This document shows, in pieces, positions 43 through 52,951 of a stretch of 64,000 bases of DNA. The stretch is from Entrophospora sp. SA101 (Eukaryota > Glomeromycota > Glomeromycetes > Entrophosporales > Entrophosporaceae). The first letter of the stretch is position 1, and every line of letters begins with the position of its first letter. The position numbers and the translations under genes were made by a program. Below the pieces are notes generated by a model. That model saw only the letters and a list, made by a program, of their open reading frames with translations, was not told the DNA's origin and made no database searches. Where the stretch lies: the NCBI GenBank assembly GCA_958430865.1, contig CAUDNR010004245.1, positions 1 through 64,000 on the forward strand, read 5' to 3'.

Positions 43-1853
43 TTAATTTCTGTGAGTTAATTTAACCTTCAATTCAACACATCTAGTACCATCAAAAGGT
101 TGCAGGCGCATAGGTTTATCACTTACCATTTCAAATTTATATTTTTTGTATAATAAAGCAACCAATAATTTAATTTGATTCATTGCCAGATGTCTTCCTG
201 GGCATATACGTAATCCACCACCAAAATGTAAAAATGTATTTTTAATAAAGGAATCATCTATTCCACTATTATTGTCATGATTTTTATTTAAGAATCTTGA
301 AGGATCAAATTTAGTTGGCTCATTCCAATAATTTGGATTCATGTGTAAACTTTGAACATTTATTGTTAATCGAGTTGAACCTGGAATTTTGTAATCACCT
401 ATTTGATCAAAATTTGCTGACTCACGATCAATTATTGTTCCAAGAGGGTTAATACGTAAAACTAACAATATAGATAAATTTATCATGTGAAATAAATTAA
501 AAATAAAATTTATAAATAACAATAATAAAAACACAATTATAAATTAATACCTTCTTTTATTACAGCTTCAATGTATTCAAATTTTTTTAAATCTTCATAA
601 TCTAAATTAGATTTATCTCCAAATACTTTTTTAATTTCTTTAAGAATAATTTGTTCAACTTCAGGGTAACTAGATACATAATATATAAGACATGATAAAA
701 CTGCAGATGACTTTTTTCAAGGAAAATTTTGATTATTAGTTTAATTAATTAATTTATCATCATTTAATATATAAATAAATACAAATATACATACAGTAAC
801 AATTCCTCCGCCAAATGTTTCATTAAGGACATTATTAATTTCATCATCAGTCATTGGTTCATCATTGAAATCATTTGCAATTCCTTGAGTAATATCTTTT
901 GGAGTATTAATAGTTAATAACATATTCAACATATCAGGTGTCAGGTTTTCTTTATCACTAATATTTTCAATTTTGTCCCTACGTTCATTGACTAAATTGT
1001 AAATATATTTTTCTCTTGATAAAAATTTGTTTAATAAATAATTTGAATAAATCTTTATCAATGGCAAATTACGTATATATGAAGGAATTGTTGCATAATA
1101 TCTCATACAATCTGCTCCAGGTTTTACATTATCAATATATTCATCCTCAGCAGTTTTAATTATATTGAAATCTTTTTTACTGGTTTTATAATAATTCAAT
1201 AATGTATTAGATGGTCTGTTTGTTGCTAATAACATTATATTTTCAGCAAAAATTCTTTTAATCCAAGGCACAAGATCAATTTCCAATACTTTTTTTTGAT
1301 GAATTTCTTGATTCATAATAGATTCTCCCATTTCATCAATTAAAGAATCCCAATAAATTTCTAAGTCTTTAAAAACACAATTTACAAGATTAGCTGAAAA
1401 TTTTAATGCATTTGGAGCCATTATAGCTCTAATGAATATTTTTCTATTATCAGCCCATTTGTTTATGTCTCTATTCAGAACAATTCCCTTGGTGCTTTTT
1501 CCTAATTCATCTATTCCTTCATTAGGTGGAAAACGTGACATGTAATTACTATTTCTCACTGGCTTCATGACATGTTCAATGATTTGTAGATTGTTAGTGA
1601 TCAATTGTCTATCAGATCCATTGTAAATTTCAAACACATCACCATATTTTAAATGTAATGAGTGAAACCATAATGGAAGATTAAAACGATGATAAAAGAT
1701 TTGATGTAAATTTCCTAATAATGGTAAAGGAAAAGGCCCTTTATAAGGATTTGGACGGGTAAAATAATTGTAATAATATTTTAATGATGAAAAAATTATT
1801 GTTATAAATAATATTGTTGCAAATGCTGAAACAATTTCTTTTAATGAAAACAT
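43..1853 (-). CDS. Cytochrome P450 monooxygenase, tandem copy 1
   Basis: Heme-thiolate monooxygenase; the substrate cannot be told from sequence. Proposed exons are 1853-795, 710-551 and 461-43, joined with GT-AG borders and giving 545 residues, normal for a fungal P450. An N-terminal hydrophobic anchor (about residues 8-28) is followed by the proline-rich hinge PFPLPLLGN, so it is probably ER-bound. Exon 2 supplies the end of the I helix (GGGIVT then SS). The ExxR motif of helix K (E-V-L-R) is created exactly at the exon 2/3 junction, which supports that splice. The heme loop FGGGLRICPG carries the axial Cys near residue 493. A paralog with the same exon sizes (1059, 160, 419/425 nt) lies at 10888-12699, and even the 3' flank is shared, so the pair arose by segmental duplication. 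The family call is secure; the CYP family number is not assigned. Confidence 0.93.
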
Positions 1854-4844: not shown

Positions 4845-5106
4845 TATGTAGATCAAAACTAATTAACATCATATAGGGCATGCTGCAACAAAACCAGACA
4901 AAGTGAACATTGGTATTACAAAATTTAGTCATCACAAATGTAATGTGATTAACAATTTTATAATGTCCCATTTGCAGGTGATATATAGAATTACCCTATA
5001 TAAAAATAGTAATATTAATATGAAACTCATTTACATCGGATCTACAATGGAACCCAAGAATTATAGTACTATCAATGTTAACATTCTTTACTATGGTTTT
5101 ATATAA
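4845..5106 (+). repeat. Dispersed repeat with a conserved peptide remnant (GHAATKPDKVNI)
   Basis: This segment is repeated at about 48627-48830 (same strand); its core is also present near 10085-10156, and its left edge recurs in complement at 9062-9092. In all three copies the core GGCATGC(T/C)(G/A)CAACAAAACCAGAC can be read as G-H-A-(A/T)-T-K-P-D-(K/R)-V-N-I, and the peptide is better conserved than the flanks, so it may descend from a protein-coding family. Copies 1 and 3 also share a downstream start reading MKLIYI..MEPKNYSTI. No family name recognised. Confidence 0.55.
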
Positions 5107-9827: not shown

Positions 9828-10590
9828 ACTACACAAGATCCAAATCCAAATCCTAATAGTACACCAAGTGATATTGCTTCTGAGAATGCTAATGCTAATG
9901 CTAATAATGATGATAGCAGTTTAACAACTAAAACTATAGTAAGATCTTTCCTATAATTATTATGGTAGATGCTACTATAGGTATATGGGAATATAAAAAA
10001 TCAAATAACAATTTATTGATAGATGAAGATAAAGTTGTGTTAAGGATAGCCAAGGGTGATCCATTTAAAAATACACTGATCAATATCATGTGGGGGCATG
10101 CCACAACAAAACCAGACAGAGTGAACATTCATGTCACAAAGATCGAAATTGTTTAACACTACAATTTTACTACCAATATAAATGAATGCTTTTGTTTCTT
10201 CCCACTTATTACTTAACTGATTGATACACAGGATTATCACCATGTAAAGAAAAACATTGTTTAAAACAAATTATAAATGTTACACATTCAAGTCCTGCAT
10301 TATGTTTGAGCACCATGAGTTCAGGTAAAGAACCTACAAATCTTTCAATAATCATTGTTAAATGCAAATTTTATTCTATTAAAAAAGTAAATAATAAATA
10401 AATATTCATATTTTCATTAACAATTTAATGGTGAATTTTTTTTGTGAAGGCTGTTGATTGGGCTCTTGATTTTTTTTTAACTCACAAAAACCAACTCTAT
10501 GACATAAATCAAAAATTTGATGAAATAATCAATCAACAATCTCAAATGATGAAGTTCAATATTTTAACAGGATGGTTTGGTGGTTGAGGC
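9828..10590 (+). pseudogene. Fragmented gene remnant, family unknown
   Basis: Several short protein-like pieces lie in order on the plus strand: a low-complexity stretch reading T-Q-D-P-N-P-N-P-N-S-T-P-S-D-I-A-S-E-N, a 64-codon frame at 9962-10156 (DATIGIWEYKKS, then GHATTKPDRVNI), and at about 10449-10590 a piece reading AVDWALDFFLTHKNQLYDIN. They do not join into one frame with convincing splice sites. The central piece shares its core with the dispersed repeat at 4845 and 48627. I cannot name a family. Confidence 0.3.
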
Positions 10591-10887
10591 CCAGAATTTT
10601 GTACTTAATTAGTAGTTAGAGAACCTAGTACTAGGGATCAACAGTCTCAAGGTTCATCCTATATGTTTATCCTTGTGTTGGCTGGTTTTGTTACAGCATG
10701 CCAATATAAGTTAAGCATTATAATTGTCAGCATCACACACACACATTTATTATTTAAAACTTTTTTTAATTCACTTCATTACAAACTTTTTTTTAAATAA
10801 TTGAGTGGGATGGGGGATAAAATAATATATATATATCTAATATTCAATATAAATGTTTGCTAATATAAATGTTATTGACTTTGAAAT

Positions 10888-12699
10888 TTAATTTCTGTGA
10901 GTTAATTTAACCTTCAATTCAATGCATTGACTATCACTAAGAATTTGCATAAACAAAGGTTTATCACTTACCAATTCAAATTTATATTTTTTGTATAATA
11001 AAGCAACCATTAATTTAACTTGATTCATTGCCAGATTTCTTCCTGGGCATATACGTAATCCACCACCAAAATGTAAAAATGTATTTTTAATAAAGGAATC
11101 TTCATCAATTCCATTATTATTGTCATGATTTTTATTTTTTAAGAATCTTGAAGGATTAAATTTGGTTGGCTCATTCCAATAATTTGGATTCATGTGTAAA
11201 CTTTGAACATTTATTGATATTAGAGTTGAACCTGGGATTTTGTAATCACCTATTTGATCAAAATTTGCTGACTCACGATTAATTGCTGTTGCAAGAGGGT
11301 TCATACGTAAAACTAAAATATAGATAAATTCATCATGTGAAACAAATTATAAAAATAAAATTTATAAATAATAATAAAAATACAATTATGAATTAATACC
11401 TTCTTTTATTACAGCTTCAATGTATTCAAATTTTTTTAAATCTTCATAATCTAAATTAGATTTATCTCCAAATACTTTTTTAATTTCTTTAAGAATGTTT
11501 TCTTCAACTTCAGGATAACTAGTTGCATAATATATAAGACATGATAAAGCTGTAGATGACTTTTTTTTCAATGGAAATTTTGGTTATTAATTTAATTAAT
11601 TACATTTAATATATATATAAATAAATATAAATATACATACAGTTTGAATTCCCCCACCAAATGTTTCACTAAGAACATCATTAATTTCATCATCAGTCAT
11701 TGGTTTATCATTAAAATCATTTGCAATGCCTTGAGTAATATCTTTTGGAGTATTAATAGTTAATAACATATTCAACATATCAGGTGTCAGGTTTTCTTTA
11801 TCACTAATATTTTCAATTTTATCCCTACGTTCATTGATTAAATTGTTAATATATTCTTTTCTTGATGAATATTTGTTTAATAAATAATCTGAATAAATCT
11901 TTATCAATGGCAAATTACGTATATATGAAGGAACCATTGCATAATATCTCATACAAACTAGTGCATCTTTTGAACCATCTAAATATTCATCCTCAGCAGT
12001 TTTAATTATGTTGGAATCTTTTTTACTGGTTTTATAATAATTCAATAATATATTAGATGGTCTGTTTGTTGTTAATAACATTATATTTTCAGTGAAAGTT
12101 CTTTTAATCCAAGGCACGATATCAATTTCCAATACTTTTTTTTGATGAATTTCTTGATTTATAATAGATTCTCCCATTTCATCAATTAAAGAATCCCAAT
12201 AAATTTCTAAGTCTTTAAAAACACAATTTACAATATTAGCTGAAAACTTTAATACATTTGGGGCCATTATAGCTTTAGTGAGCATTTTTCTATTATCGGC
12301 CCATTTGTTAATGTCTCTATTCAGAACAATTCCCTTGGTGCTTTTTCCCATTGCATCTAGTCCTTCATTAGGTGGAAAACGTAACATGTAATTATTATTT
12401 CTCACTGGCTTCATGATATGTTCAATGATTTGTAGATTGTTAGTGATCAATTGTCTTTTAGATCCACTGTAAATTTCAACCACATCACCATATTTTAAAT
12501 GTAATGAGTGAAACCATAATGGATTGTTAAAACGATGATAAAAGAGTTGATGTAAATTTCCTAATAATGGTAAAGGAAAAGGCCCTTTATAAGGATTTGG
12601 ACGAGTAAAATAATTGTAATAATATTTTAATGATGAAAAAATTATTGTTATAAATAATATTGTTGCAGATGCTGAAATGATTTCTTTTAATGAAAACAT
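10888..12699 (-). CDS. Cytochrome P450 monooxygenase, tandem copy 2
   Basis: Paralog of the gene at 43-1853 with identical architecture: exons 12699-11641, 11559-11400 and 11312-10888, giving 547 residues. It has the N-terminal membrane anchor, the PFPLPLLGN hinge, I-helix region GGGIQT followed by SST, the ExxR motif E-V-L-R formed across the second splice, and the heme loop FGGGLRICPG with Cys near residue 495. All lengths and motifs are intact, so it is probably active. Differences from copy 1 are scattered substitutions plus a few codons in the N/D-rich loop before the heme site, consistent with a fairly recent duplication and possible substrate divergence. Probably ER membrane-anchored. 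Confidence 0.93.
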
Positions 12700-48626: not shown

Positions 48627-49025
48627 TATGGGGCATGCTGCAACAAAACCAGACAAAGTGAACATTGGTATTACCAAGAATTTCAGGGATCAATATTATT
48701 TTTTAACATCACGATTGTATCACCATGTAATGTGATCATGATATTTGTCTAGACAAAAATAGTTAATATGAAACTCATTTACATCCTATCTGTTATGGAA
48801 CCCAAAAATTATAGCACTATTAGAAGTATTCTAAAAAAAGAACAAGGTGAAAAAATTGTTCCTTACATTTTCAAAATAAATGATACTCAGACACTGGAAG
48901 CTTATCTAAAAAAAGAAAGGATTACCTATGAAATTTACCATGAAGAAAGAAAAATAATAAGCAATAAACGAACCTTAACATCAGCTCATGATGAACCAAG
49001 AAAGAAAAGAAGACTGGCAGAATAA
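48627..49025 (+). repeat. Dispersed fungal repeat with 85-codon frame, next to the bacterial-type gene
   Basis: Left part (GGGGCATGCTGCAACAAAAC, AGACAAAGTGAACATTGGTA) matches the repeat at 4878-4920, and the frame from ATG 48768 begins MKLIYILSVMEPKNYSTI like the one at 5021. Here the frame stays open to 49025 with a Lys/Glu-rich C-terminus (ending PRKKRRLAE, a possible nuclear localisation signal). This is the longest copy in the window. Its stop lies only 15 bp from the stop of the convergent bacterial-type gene, so the fungal/bacterial junction is probably between 49026 and 49040. Confidence 0.55.
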
Positions 49026-49040
49026 ACAATCAAATCATTA

Positions 49041-52000
49041 TTAATCATCATCATCATCATCATCATCCAATTCATCTTCTAAATCGGAAGGAGAATTTCA
49101 TCATTGGAGAAGGGTTTTTCTTTTGCGAATAATTCAAATAATTCCTGCTAAGAGTAAAAGTAAGCCCAGTCCACCTAGTCAAGCAGCAAGATTATTCATT
49201 CTTCAAAAGCTTTCTTTGGAAGTAGGAGTTAATTTTTGGGTTTGATTTTTAGCATAACTATGGTTAATTCCGCCGAGTTTTTCGAAATAGTATTTTTTAG
49301 TTCCTGCTTCATTTGGACTAACTCCATCTCCATAAATGTTCCAATCTAAACTTTTAGTTTTATCTGCTGGATTTCGATCAGCTCTCATTTCAGTTTCAAT
49401 TTCTTCTTTCTTAGCATTGTCAGTTTTGATGTGATAATCAGCGACTGCTCCAATTACATACTGTGGACTGAGAGTAAAGAAATAGTTTAATTTATCTTGT
49501 TCAGCAACATTATCCTCAGGAAAAGGAGGAATTCCTTTTTTATCTTTTAAATAATCTTTGAGATGAGTAAAGAAAGGCTCAAAATCATCCAAATCATTCA
49601 CAATACTTCCAATCTTTTTTAGTTCTAATTCATCTTTTCTAAAGAGTTTTTGGTCTCCAAAATTCTTTCATTGTTCTACTAAAGAAGTAGTAATATCTGC
49701 ATCAATCTTGAAAACTGAACGAAGATTTTCACTTCTTAATTCTGGATTAGTTAAGTAATTAGTAATCGCCAATAATTCTGCTTCTTCTTCTAGACTAATA
49801 CCGATGATTTGCTGAGCATTATTTAACTCACTTTTTAGTAAATTAAAATAAGTTGTAATGCTTTTCCCAGTTAGGTTTCTTCCTTCTTTTTTTTCTCAAT
49901 TATTTAGTCTTTCTCAAAAACTAGCACCTAAACCTTGTCAAGTGCTATAAGTAGGAAGTTTAGCATTTCGAATAGCTTCTAACTGTTCTACTTTAGTGAG
50001 ATATCCTCTTTCAGTGGTTGTAAGGAGAGTTTCTAGTTTGCCTTCATTTTCTAAATCAGTTAAGAAGTAAATCAAAGTTCTAATCGCAATCGTTTCTTGA
50101 TAAGTGATAATTTCTTGATTAGATGGATCAGTTAATTTATCTCCTAAATTTTTAAGTTGAGTTCGTAAGTGATTAATTTGATTAGTTTCAAAATCCTTAA
50201 TTTGATTTTGGATTTGGATCAGTTTTTGTTTTTTATCAGCTTTTTGAAGACTAATTTTAGTTAATTCACTCCTTTTTTTTCCTAATTCCGCATGAATACT
50301 TTCTAAACCTACTCGTTTATCAGCTGTAATAGTTTTTCATTCATTTCACACATCTATCATTTCATTATCAATTTCTTTATTCTTGACTTCTCTAGTTAAT
50401 CATTTGGCTTGATAAGGATTAAGTTCATTACTTCTAACTTTTAATTCATCAAAACTTAAACCTTTCGCTTCCTCTCTAAATTTTACAAGAGTATCCATAG
50501 CCTTTTTCACTACCTTTTGGCTAATTTTAGTTCATTTGAGACAAAGCTCGTTAACCTCTTCCTCTTCAAATAATTTTTTCCCAGTCGCATCCAATAAATT
50601 ACTGATAAATTTCTCGACATACAAAGTATAGTTTTTTTTTGCAATATGACGGTTAAAAATTGATGATGAACAAGTTAATTTCTTCTCATAAATGGTTATT
50701 TCTTCCTCTCTAATTCTTTCATCCATAATCCCATCTTTACTAATTACCTCATCATAAGCATTAAATTCAACGGCTTCATCACTATTATAAACTTGTCAAA
50801 AGAATTTGGGAATTTGACCATTAGCCCAAGTTAAGTGTTTTTCTTCAACATCAAAAGGAGCTTTCAACACATTTGTGCTATTATCAACATATTTCTTTCC
50901 AATAATACTTGCATCAGCTCCTCGTCAATACATTGTATAAGAATTATCTAAACTATAGCCATTCTTAAAAGGTAAACAACTCTTTTGACCTTTTTGTATG
51001 AAAGGACTATTTTGATAGTTGCTATCTTTGGGAAAGAGAGCATGCATGACATAAAAAATATCACTAATATACCTTCTTCTCTCTTTGAACTCTCCTTTAC
51101 TTATATTCTTCTTTCTTTTTGTATTAGAATAAAGATAGCTCATTAAATCTTTATCACGTTCATTTGAAATTTTAGCATTTCAGTTTATAACTCTCTCAAA
51201 AGCACCTTTAAATTTTTTCTTATCACCAGCATCCCAAGCACAATCTGAAGAATCAATATATTTGAAAAGTTTATCTTTATCAATATCTTTGAGAATAGTT
51301 CAAATTTGCCCTACAAAATCAGTACTCAAATAAAGTGGATGAGTATAAGGTTTATTATTCCCATTATAACCAGTTTTGATAATGGAACCATAATGTTCAG
51401 TGGTAGCTGGAACATCAGATTTATAATTTAATTCTGAAAAATTTTTACCATTTTCAATTATAAATTCTAAAAATTTACGACCTCCTGTGTTAACAATTCT
51501 AAGATCATCTTTTAAAGCAGTAACTGCAGTGTCAACCTTATTTTCTAAATTAGTTTGTTCTTGAAGAACTTGAGGATTATATTTTTTTTCTAACTCAGTA
51601 ATTTCTTTGGCAACCTTTTCTTCTTCTTTTGATACTTTGGCAAAAGTAATTAATGCTTCCTTTAATTTTAAATCCAAAGTTTTATTGTTTTTTCTAAATA
51701 AGACAGTTTGGTATTCTTTTACCATTTTATCAACTCTTCTTTCCTCATTTTCATCCTTTTCATTAACTAATTGGTAAGCAATGGAATTATTTCTTCTTTG
51801 CTCCATTAAAGCAACAAGTAAAGCATTACCATTAGTAGACAATCCTGTTTCAGAAGTTTTTTCAGTAACTAAATTAGCCTCTGCTTTTTTACAATTATTT
51901 AATAATTCAGCAGTATCTTGGAGAAGAGAAACATCCAAAATACCATTAGGAGTTAAAAGAGAACTATTAAAGATTTCTTTTTCTGGTTGAGTGAGTTCAC

Positions 52001-52067
52001 CACCATGATAGTCAGGATATTCCTTTGTTTTTTTGATTGTATTGATATCATTTTTATTGAATGTCAT
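49041..52067 (-). CDS. Mollicutes-type gene (UGA = Trp), large coiled-coil membrane protein
   Basis: One open frame of 1,009 codons from ATG 52067 to TAA 49043-49041 when TGA is read as Trp (code 4). The standard code breaks it at 17 places, and all 17 are TGA; no TAA or TAG occurs in frame. Trp is coded 17 times by TGA and 3 times by TGG. The start follows AGGAAG by 7 nt, a good Shine-Dalgarno spacing. The protein is hydrophilic, Lys/Glu/Asn-rich, with heptad-like helical stretches (KVSKEEEKVAKEITELEKKY, QKADKKQKLIQIQNQIKDFE). A single C-terminal transmembrane helix W-L-G-G-L-G-L-L-L-L-L-A-G-I-I-W-I-I is followed by RKRK and a tail of 8 Asp. No signal peptide seen. No family recognised. Codon reassignment, composition and the SD site indicate a Mollicutes donor, presumably the fungus's endobacteria. 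In the fungal nucleus it cannot be translated beyond the first TGA. Confidence 0.85.
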
Positions 52068-52074
52068 GATTTTA

Positions 52075-52080
52075 CTTCCT
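52075..52080 (-). promoter_or_regulatory. Shine-Dalgarno-like site of the Mollicutes-type gene
   Basis: AGGAAG on the minus strand with a 7-nt spacer (TAAAATC) before ATG 52067. It decides the start: the upstream in-frame codons back to 52106 have no such site. A TATAAT-like word just upstream could be a bacterial -10 box but is not significant in DNA this AT-rich. Confidence 0.6.
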
Positions 52081-52177: not shown

Positions 52178-52941
52178 TTATTCAATATCAGTATAAATTG
52201 GTTTGGGACAAGTGATATCTTTGTATTCATCTTTCACAAATGGGCGAATATTATGATAAAGATACTCTTGTCTTTTGTAGTCCAAAGGAGGTGGTGTTAA
52301 CATTAAAATAGATAAAGCTCTAATTTCTTCAAAAATATCTGATTTCTTGGTTTTCAATAAATTGAATTCAGTAAAAGGTCCATTAGCAACTTCTTGAACT
52401 TTGACCACACCAAGGTTAGATGCTTCAAAAAGAAAATGTTGATATTTTTGTATACTTGGTAATTTCTTGAAATAAATTCCCAAAATTGCTTTAATATCTA
52501 AATATTGAAAACCTTTTCCACCTTCATAACATTGAGCTCTATTCAATCCTGCTGGACTAGACTTTTTTACCACCTCAACCACATGATCCAAACAATCTAC
52601 TCTGGTTCTTCTATAGAGTTTTTTAATCATGCCAAAATTACCATCACATTTGAATTTGGTATGTCCTGGAACCATGAAATTTAGTTCAATGCTTTCATAA
52701 TAACCACAAATTACTAAATATAAATAAAACCAAACTGTTACATTATTTTTATTTTGCCCACCAGCATTATCACAGGTGATCTTTAAATGCTTTTCACCTT
52801 TGTTCAATTTCTTAATTCCATCAAAAATCATACTAAGAGTGCCATTGGGTCCTTTTCCTATAGCTTCATCTTCATTAAGAACATAATTAATTTGTTCCCT
52901 TACTGCTTCATCTTGAATACCAAATAAATGAACTTTACATG
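52178..52941 (-). CDS. DUF7869-like, transposon-associated protein, 5' end missing
   Basis: The open frame continues from the assembly gap (first readable codons C-K-V-H-L-F-G-I-Q-D-E) to TAA at 52178, about 254 residues seen. The central motif ITCDNAGGQNKNNVTVWFYL followed by NFMVPGHTKFKCDGNFGMIK and KKLYRRTRV is the RNase H-like core pattern (D-N..G-Q-N-K-N-N, G-H-T-K) of a family that is spread in fungal genomes with DNA transposons. It uses TGG for Trp and no internal TGA, so it belongs to the standard-code (fungal) side. The N-terminal part lies beyond the 10-N gap. It stands 110 bp upstream of the Mollicutes-type gene on the same strand. Confidence 0.65.
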
Positions 52942-52951
52942 NNNNNNNNNN
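52942..52951. other. Assembly gap (10 N)
   Basis: Ten unknown bases between two contigs. The sequence right of the gap (TGGCTGCCGCAGTAAGTTGG) does not continue the DUF7869-like frame, so the gap length is arbitrary and the join is a scaffolding decision. Confidence 0.99.

What the first reader, a model, noticed from the sequence alone, without database searches (positions are those of the whole stretch)
49041..52067. Intact Mollicutes-code gene (UGA = Trp) inside a fungal scaffold
Seen directly: one 1,009-codon frame whose only in-frame standard stops are 17 TGA codons (49098, 49101, 49134, 49179, 49203, 49668, 49896, 49914, 49938, 50337, 50346, 50400, 50532, 50796, 50925, 51180, 51300), with zero TAA/TAG and only three TGG. 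A random AT-rich sequence would have many TAA. Known: Mollicutes read UGA as Trp, and glomeromycotan fungi host Mollicutes-related endobacteria. Inference: this is DNA from the endobacterium, either newly inserted into the fungal nuclear genome or mis-joined in assembly. Standard gene finders would report only unrelated short ORFs here, so it is easy to miss.
Basis: partly seen in the sequence, partly recalled or inferred. Interest (0 to 1): 0.97.

Follow-up and report, generated by a model that had tools for sequence, protein, structure and literature searches.

The report
Fungal transposon in bacterial genetic code
A gene that only makes sense if the stop codon UGA is read as tryptophan turns out to be cargo of a repeated mobile element scattered through a fungal genome, whose own genes appear to use the ordinary code, instead of being one stray piece of bacterial DNA.

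Summary
In detail: 49041-52067 (minus) is one 1,008-codon frame with 17 in-frame TGA, no internal TAA/TAG and 3 TGG. The frame is written in a UGA=Trp code, but it is neither one new endobacterial insertion nor a mis-join. It is cargo of a transposon-like family in this 101-Mb assembly: copies on 13 contigs (8 full length with TGA as only internal stop), 12 ending at the same 3' end, 8 with the element's DUF7869 gene seen upstream. DUF7869 (152 matching stretches) and a Cys-rich gene (155), plus a coiled-coil gene, are TGA-coded too. TGA sits at tryptophans of standard-code relatives and swaps with TGG between copies; dN/dS under table 4 is 0.30-0.53. Bacterial, TGA-using contigs exist in the assembly, yet none of 19 recognised is among 161 contigs listed for the element. 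The DUF7869 lineage includes a Candidatus Moeniiplasma protein; the cargo gene has no Mollicutes hit. Best reading: an element adapted to the Mollicutes endosymbiont's code that colonised the host nucleus. Donor, direction, translating compartment and transposase are inferred, not shown.

The parts
49041..52067 (-). UGA=Trp cargo gene, 1,008 aa; by eye K/E/N-rich with one hydrophobic stretch near the C terminus, then a basic and an Asp-rich tail; no family match
52075..52080 (-). AGGAAG, Shine-Dalgarno-like motif before the ATG, kept in 6 of 7 copies inspected, the window included (AAGAAG in L010)
52178..52941 (-). C-terminal part of the element's DUF7869 gene (residues 338-590 of the 590-aa frame); the rest is missing or lies in the gap
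52942..52951 (.). run of 10 N, the only gap in the window; upstream end of the readable element
48768..49025 (+). ORF4, small convergent frame (85 aa, basic end) shared by the element family; no Trp codon
48626..48960 (-). 3' terminal repeat of the element, ending ...GTTTTGTTGCAGCATGCCCCATAT
4871..5072 (-). solo remnant of the same 3' end in the same orientation (matched pieces 4871-4922 and 5011-5072)
10093..10142 (-). 50-base fragment of the same 3' end, 84% identity

Best explanation
The frame is cargo of a DNA mobile element whose genes were shaped where UGA means Trp. Ordinary form of the element: a DUF7869 gene of about 590 aa (taken to be the transposase), a coiled-coil gene, a Cys-rich gene, a small convergent gene and a fixed 3' end. 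In the copies described here a gene of about 1,000 aa fills the slot of the two middle genes. Proposed history: a fungal DUF7869 element entered the Mollicutes endosymbiont; there Trp codons drifted from TGG to TGA under selection for function and the element took up cargo; it then entered fungal nuclei, where it is dispersed, seems to exchange segments between copies, and decays. Shown: structure, copy number, UGA=Trp coding, purifying selection, eukaryotic-type genes around the window copy. Inferred: fungal identity of the scaffold (from relatives), origin in the endosymbiont, direction of transfer, DUF7869 as transposase. Unknown: what moved the nuclear copies.
For: 13 contigs with the gene, 8 copies full length with TGA as only internal stop. 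Shared flanks and a sharp 3' end. DUF7869, coiled-coil and Cys-rich frames of copies without the large gene are TGA-coded too. TGA-coded W220 and W316 are Trp in R. irregularis proteins. In 17 DUF7869 loci 42 TGA lie at Trp sites and 9 elsewhere, all 9 in two loci that also hold TAA/TAG. dN/dS 0.30-0.53 in 27 pairs under table 4; 0 TAA/TAG against 7.0, 10.9 and 22.2 expected for 195, 316 and 824 substitutions. The one standard-code DUF7869 copy of this genome that I fetched has 8 TGG and no TGA in 624 codons. Tree: rows with known TGA coding and the Moeniiplasma protein on one side of a 100/99 branch, standard-code rows on the other.
Against: No Mollicutes genome gave a hit to the cargo gene (GTDB scans 8 and 18 also gave none). 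No recognised bacterial contig of this assembly is listed with the element, so the donor is missing. P0044 comes from a MAG contig that I could not inspect and may be misbinned. The nuclear spread needs a protein that a nucleus with the ordinary code would not make full length. No test of DUF7869 as transposase: no solved relative, no structure. 5' end and target-site duplication unresolved. Two copies (C1010, C1744) lack DUF7869 directly upstream. The tree root is a midpoint, so it gives no direction.
Confidence: 0.57

Rival explanations
1. Serial deposition: the element lives and evolves only in the endosymbiont, and nuclear copies are repeated dead-on-arrival transfers (like nuclear mitochondrial DNA) with no movement inside the nucleus.
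For: Explains TGA-only frames and dN/dS below 1: selection acted in the donor. Shine-Dalgarno-like motif.
Against: 152 DUF7869 stretches, 155 for the Cys-rich gene and two to three more 3'-end fragments in this window are many for a donor not found on 19 recognised bacterial contigs. C1739 and C185 share a flank but hold different gene versions, with 100% blocks next to 57-65% blocks, which points to exchange in the nucleus unless it is an assembly artefact.
Confidence: 0.2
2. The fungus itself, or its mitochondria, reads these UGA codons as Trp (suppression, readthrough, or delivery to mitochondria), so this is a nuclear transposon with an unusual expression route.
For: The element is dispersed over many contigs; DUF7869 relatives occur in several fungal assemblies, including Geosiphon contigs up to 1.19 Mb.
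Against: An exact pattern found three UCA-anticodon tRNAs, in clusters or surroundings that look bacterial; the pattern can miss others. Five of eight host-like frames of the window hold TGG and no TGA, three hold one TGA each; the frames were chosen as open by the ordinary code, so this is weak. The sampled standard-code DUF7869 has TGG only. Mitochondrial code not testable: no COX1 in the assembly. The chitin synthase control did not complete.
Confidence: 0.13
3. Contamination or mis-join: a bacterial contig wrongly joined to the fungal scaffold.
For: Bacterial contigs are in the assembly. Contamination of this kind is published (PMC11423566, abstract and part 1 of its Observation section read; PMC10507103, section 10 and passages read). 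A 10-N gap touches the upstream end.
Against: The downstream junction is gap-free and is identical in a second contig, C185 (3' end and about 1.5 kb of flank). 12 of 13 copies end at one place in mostly different surroundings. 0 of 19 bacterial contigs among 161.
Confidence: 0.04
4. One reading: one recent insertion of a single endobacterial gene into the nucleus.
For: Intact frame, foreign code, eukaryotic-type scaffold.
Against: 13 contigs, diverged down to 34% identity, with common flanks.
Confidence: 0.02
5. The TGA codons are not Trp: they lie in introns, are selenocysteine, or arose by decay after insertion.
For: Public gene models lack stretches around them. Two CGA-to-TGA differences in C1010 look like decay.
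Against: The stretches stay in frame and conserved. Two TGA sites are Trp in standard-code relatives. TGA swaps with TGG at Trp sites. 12 of 17 DUF7869 loci hold no TAA/TAG.
Confidence: 0.02

Closest known systems
DUF7869 (PF25273) genes of glomeromycotan fungi, e.g. Rhizophagus irregularis GLOIN_2v1484099 (P0038)
   Same: Homologous over 95% of the 590-aa protein at 37-39% identity, with the same conserved Trp and acidic positions
   Different: Annotated by the ordinary code; this lineage has TGA at two fixed and three variable Trp sites and TGA-coded companion genes
DUF7869 protein of Candidatus Moeniiplasma glomeromycotorum (P0044, I3273_02745)
   Same: Same side of the 100/99 branch as the TGA lineage; 54-55% identity to P0015
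   Different: 329 aa only; context not seen; no cargo relative found in Mollicutes
Endosymbiont or organelle DNA in nuclear genomes (NUMT-like); nuclear copies of mitoviruses with in-frame UGA (both from recall)
   Same: Sequence written in another compartment's code sitting in a nuclear genome
   Different: Here a dispersed family with a fixed 3' end, several genes and alternative cargo
Host-to-endobacterium gene transfer in Mollicutes-related endobacteria (PMC10507103, section 10 read)
   Same: Gene traffic between the same two kinds of partner
   Different: Direction reported there is fungus to bacterium; here the code suggests traffic back

Membership tests
Mollicutes-code gene | TGA is the only in-frame standard stop and stands for Trp | tested here: met
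   (the homology test is on the neighbouring DUF7869 gene)
Mollicutes-code gene | closest relatives are in Mollicutes genomes | tested here: not met
   13 hits: 12 from fungal assemblies, 1 from a JGI metagenome (only 8,000 candidates scored each time)
Transposable element | dispersed copies in different surroundings with a defined end | tested here: met
   3' end in 12 of 13 copies and 3 reference copies
Transposable element | both termini and target-site duplication | tested here: inconclusive
   only a weak subterminal inverted match, about 90% over 20-21 bases in several copies, E about 0.1
Transposable element | encodes a mobility enzyme | tested here: inconclusive
   DUF7869 only; no solved relative; fold not predicted
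Endosymbiont-to-nucleus transfer | donor copy present in the endosymbiont | tested here: inconclusive
   0 of 19 bacterial contigs here; one Moeniiplasma MAG protein for DUF7869
Endosymbiont-to-nucleus transfer | junctions in single long reads | not testable with these tools
   no reads held
DUF7869 family (PF25273) | score above the curated cut-off | tested here: met
   59 bits for the window ORF, 64.2 for P0015, cut-off 26

The most novel reading that the evidence does not exclude
A transposon that shuttles between two kingdoms inside one cell: its proteins can be made only by the Mollicutes endosymbiont because of the code, yet its DNA lives and multiplies in the fungal nucleus, so part of the host genome's growth depends on a bacterium's ribosomes.
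Probability: 0.3. Interest if true: 0.97.

Novelty: new variant of a known kind. Interest (0 to 1): 0.88.

Why it matters
A repeated element in a nuclear genome whose genes make sense only in another organism's code would be, as far as I know, a very clear mark of gene traffic from a Mollicutes endosymbiont back into its fungal host, and on a genome-wide scale. The code marks which compartment selected each sequence, makes endosymbiont-to-host transfer in mycorrhizal fungi testable with cured strains, and warns that standard annotation breaks or misses these genes in several published fungal genomes.

Tried and rejected
Rejected: single insertion; mis-join; introns, selenocysteine or decay as the source of TGA. 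An element-borne suppressor tRNA: none in the window or in 16 element loci. Mobilisation by the host's standard-code DUF7869 element: the one sampled (C396, 4 kb) shares neither end beyond chance matches; one sample only.

Led nowhere: GTDB and IMG/VR scans (pattern matches but no relative); Pfam, NCBIfam and PHROGs on the cargo gene (none). PDB profiles: none for DUF7869, two hits at E 0.7-0.8 for the cargo. Weak, below-cut-off Pfam matches that I did not use: RAG1_imp_bd for P0015 (E 0.02), TSC22 for the Cys-rich gene (E 3.2e-5, 24.4 bits against 30) and Viral_Rep for ORF4 (E 0.052); an HNH PHROG for P0015 (E 0.0049). COX1 absent. Passages of PMC9965874 and PMC7082362 do not give this fungus's mitochondrial code; the second says mitoviruses of Gigaspora margarita lack UGA. 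RF00177 also matched C1738 and C507 at 368-369 bits over 1,776 bases, probably the fungus's own 18S. Literature: 'DUF7869' gave 0 papers; seven other searches listed no title or abstract start describing such an element; supplements and most subscription journals were not searched.

Full report
Check of the observation. The frame at 49041-52067 (minus) is real: 1,008 codons, 17 TGA, 3 TGG, no internal TAA/TAG, closed by TAA. Random sequence of the same first-order composition never fell below 35 TAA/TAG per 1,009 codons in 2,000 runs (mean 55.8). All 17 reported positions match.

Surroundings. The window holds eukaryotic-type genes: two P450 frames, two protein kinase frames, a Slo-like channel piece and a BACK-domain piece. 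That the organism is a glomeromycotan fungus is inferred from the names of relatives of the two element genes; the host-like genes were not searched for relatives. Upstream of the gene, on the same strand, a DUF7869 fragment ends at 52178; downstream lies a small convergent frame, 48768-49025. The only gap is a 10-N run at 52942-52951.

It is a family. In the window's assembly (G000, 101,348,593 bases, 2,123 contigs) the protein matches 18 stretches on 13 contigs. Eight contigs hold a full-length copy (994 aa or more) with TGA as only internal stop; two of these, C1709 and C1398, are identical in the coding comparison. C313 is split over two frames; C1289, C1744, C1061 and C1424 are partial or broken; TAA or TAG occur in C1424 and C1061.

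The homology is larger than the gene. In gene orientation copies match beyond it on both sides. A common 3' end at about 48626 is seen in 12 of 13, not in C1424 at the expected place. Upstream, DUF7869 sequence is seen in 8 of 13 (C1739, C185, C1838, C1798, C1424, C2065, C313, C1709). For C1289, C1061 and C1398 that side is N or the contig end. C1010 and C1744 have something else there. The 3' terminal segment had 1,763 and 1,493 unscored first-look candidates; 40 were scored in each search, giving 44 and 41 matches. The window holds further fragments at 4871-5072 and 10093-10142, and a 25-base match at 10678-10702.

Copies without this gene. I read 13 distinct places: L025, L026, L027, L036 and L038-L046 (L047 repeats L025; L037 repeats L014, which carries the large gene). 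The DUF7869 frame is 571 codons or longer in 5 of 13 and cut or broken in the rest. A coiled-coil frame of about 200-360 residues follows in 9 of 13, then in several a Cys-rich frame of 206-229 residues where complete; the small convergent frame is seen in L025, L026 and L027. Apart from the convergent frame, these are open over their length only if TGA is read; the coiled-coil frame of L025 has 11 TGA and no TGG. The Cys-rich protein matches 155 stretches; in the first 77 listed rows internal stops are 225 TGA, 44 TAA and 21 TAG.

UGA is Trp. W220 and W316 of the DUF7869 protein, both TGA, are Trp in R. irregularis proteins that cover them. In 17 loci (C2065 once), W220 is TGA at 15 of 15 sites, W316 16 of 16, W93 4 of 13, W141 1 of 14 (one GGA), W407 6 of 17. 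Altogether 42 TGA lie at Trp sites and 9 elsewhere, all 9 in L017 and L036, which also hold TAA/TAG; L027, L043 and L044 hold TAA as well (recount). The standard-code copy fetched at C396 has 8 TGG and no TGA.

Selection. For the eight full-length copies, Nei-Gojobori under table 4 gives dN/dS 0.30-0.53 in 27 pairs, dS 0.014 to 1.39; the 28th pair is identical. Against the window copy, copies with 195, 316 and 824 substitutions hold 0 TAA/TAG where 7.0, 10.9 and 22.2 are expected (0 of 500 simulations as low in each); for the two nearest copies (18 and 27 substitutions) the test has no power. Ratios at the largest dS are rough.

Mosaic copies. C1739 and C185 are 100% alike in the 3' end and about 1.5 kb of flank, yet 57-65% over about 600 bases of the gene's end. 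C313 and C2065 are 100% alike over about 1.8 kb with 64-97% on either side. This looks like exchange between copies; repeat assembly could also cause it.

Is it the endobacterium's DNA? The assembly holds bacterial contigs: three full 16S matches (C1138, C293, C923), two of them 95% alike and both 83% to the third, not classified further; three UCA-anticodon tRNAs (C792 twice, C1735) among bacterial-looking genes; and tyrosine recombinases, mostly with TGA. I counted 19 contigs: 17 (leaving out C496 and C936, which show no TGA) plus C1138 and C923. None is among 161 contigs listed for the cargo gene, DUF7869 or the 3' end. The lists are capped and the 19 are not all bacterial contigs. The cargo gene has 13 public relatives, 12 from glomeromycotan assemblies and 1 from a metagenome. 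The DUF7869 protein has 67, among them P0044 of a Candidatus Moeniiplasma MAG and Geosiphon models on contigs up to 1.19 Mb. In a 34-row tree (11 of 31 inner branches well supported, midpoint root) TGA rows and P0044 lie on one side of a 100/99 branch; P0044 groups with a Racocetra model and two metagenome rows (99/93). Codons of public rows were not seen.

Mechanism. Most likely a DUF7869 element from a fungus adapted in a UGA=Trp cell, for which the Mollicutes endosymbiont is the obvious candidate, took up cargo and came to the nucleus, where copies spread and decay. By eye the cargo protein has no hydrophobic start and one membrane stretch before a charged tail, so it is probably a membrane-anchored protein of the donor; two bacterial frames on C792 end similarly, a resemblance only. 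What moves the nuclear copies is open.

Known or new. Transfer of fungal genes to these endobacteria and contamination of fungal assemblies by them are published (PMC10507103 section 10 and passages; PMC11423566 abstract and part 1 of the Observation section). Neither text as read describes a repeated UGA-coded nuclear element; eight paper searches listed none by title or abstract start.

Verdict. Observation confirmed; interpretation partly supported; a repeated element family in a UGA=Trp code inside a eukaryotic scaffold is well supported; donor, route and enzyme are inferred.

Noticed in passing
G000 C1138:11677-13202, C293:10309-11788, C923:24002-25489 (L031-L033): Three full-length bacterial 16S matches, two about 95% alike and both about 83% to the third, so at least two bacterial types in this assembly.
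   Followed up: partly
L028:584-1006 and L028:1876-2619 (C792): Bacterial frames with a C-terminal hydrophobic stretch and charged tail, laid out like the end of the window protein.
   Followed up: no
C1739/C185 and C313/C2065: Blocks of 100% identity beside strongly diverged blocks within the cargo gene: exchange between copies or repeat assembly.
   Followed up: partly
L010 (C1010): Two codons that are CGA in the window copy are TGA here, the pattern of CpG decay in a near-identical copy.
   Followed up: partly
48768-49025 (+): The small convergent frame keeps its N-terminal part but has different basic C-terminal ends between copies.
   Followed up: no
window 741-1853 and 11596-12699 (-): Two partial P450 frames with the same domain layout, about 10 kb apart, perhaps a tandem duplication.
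   Followed up: no
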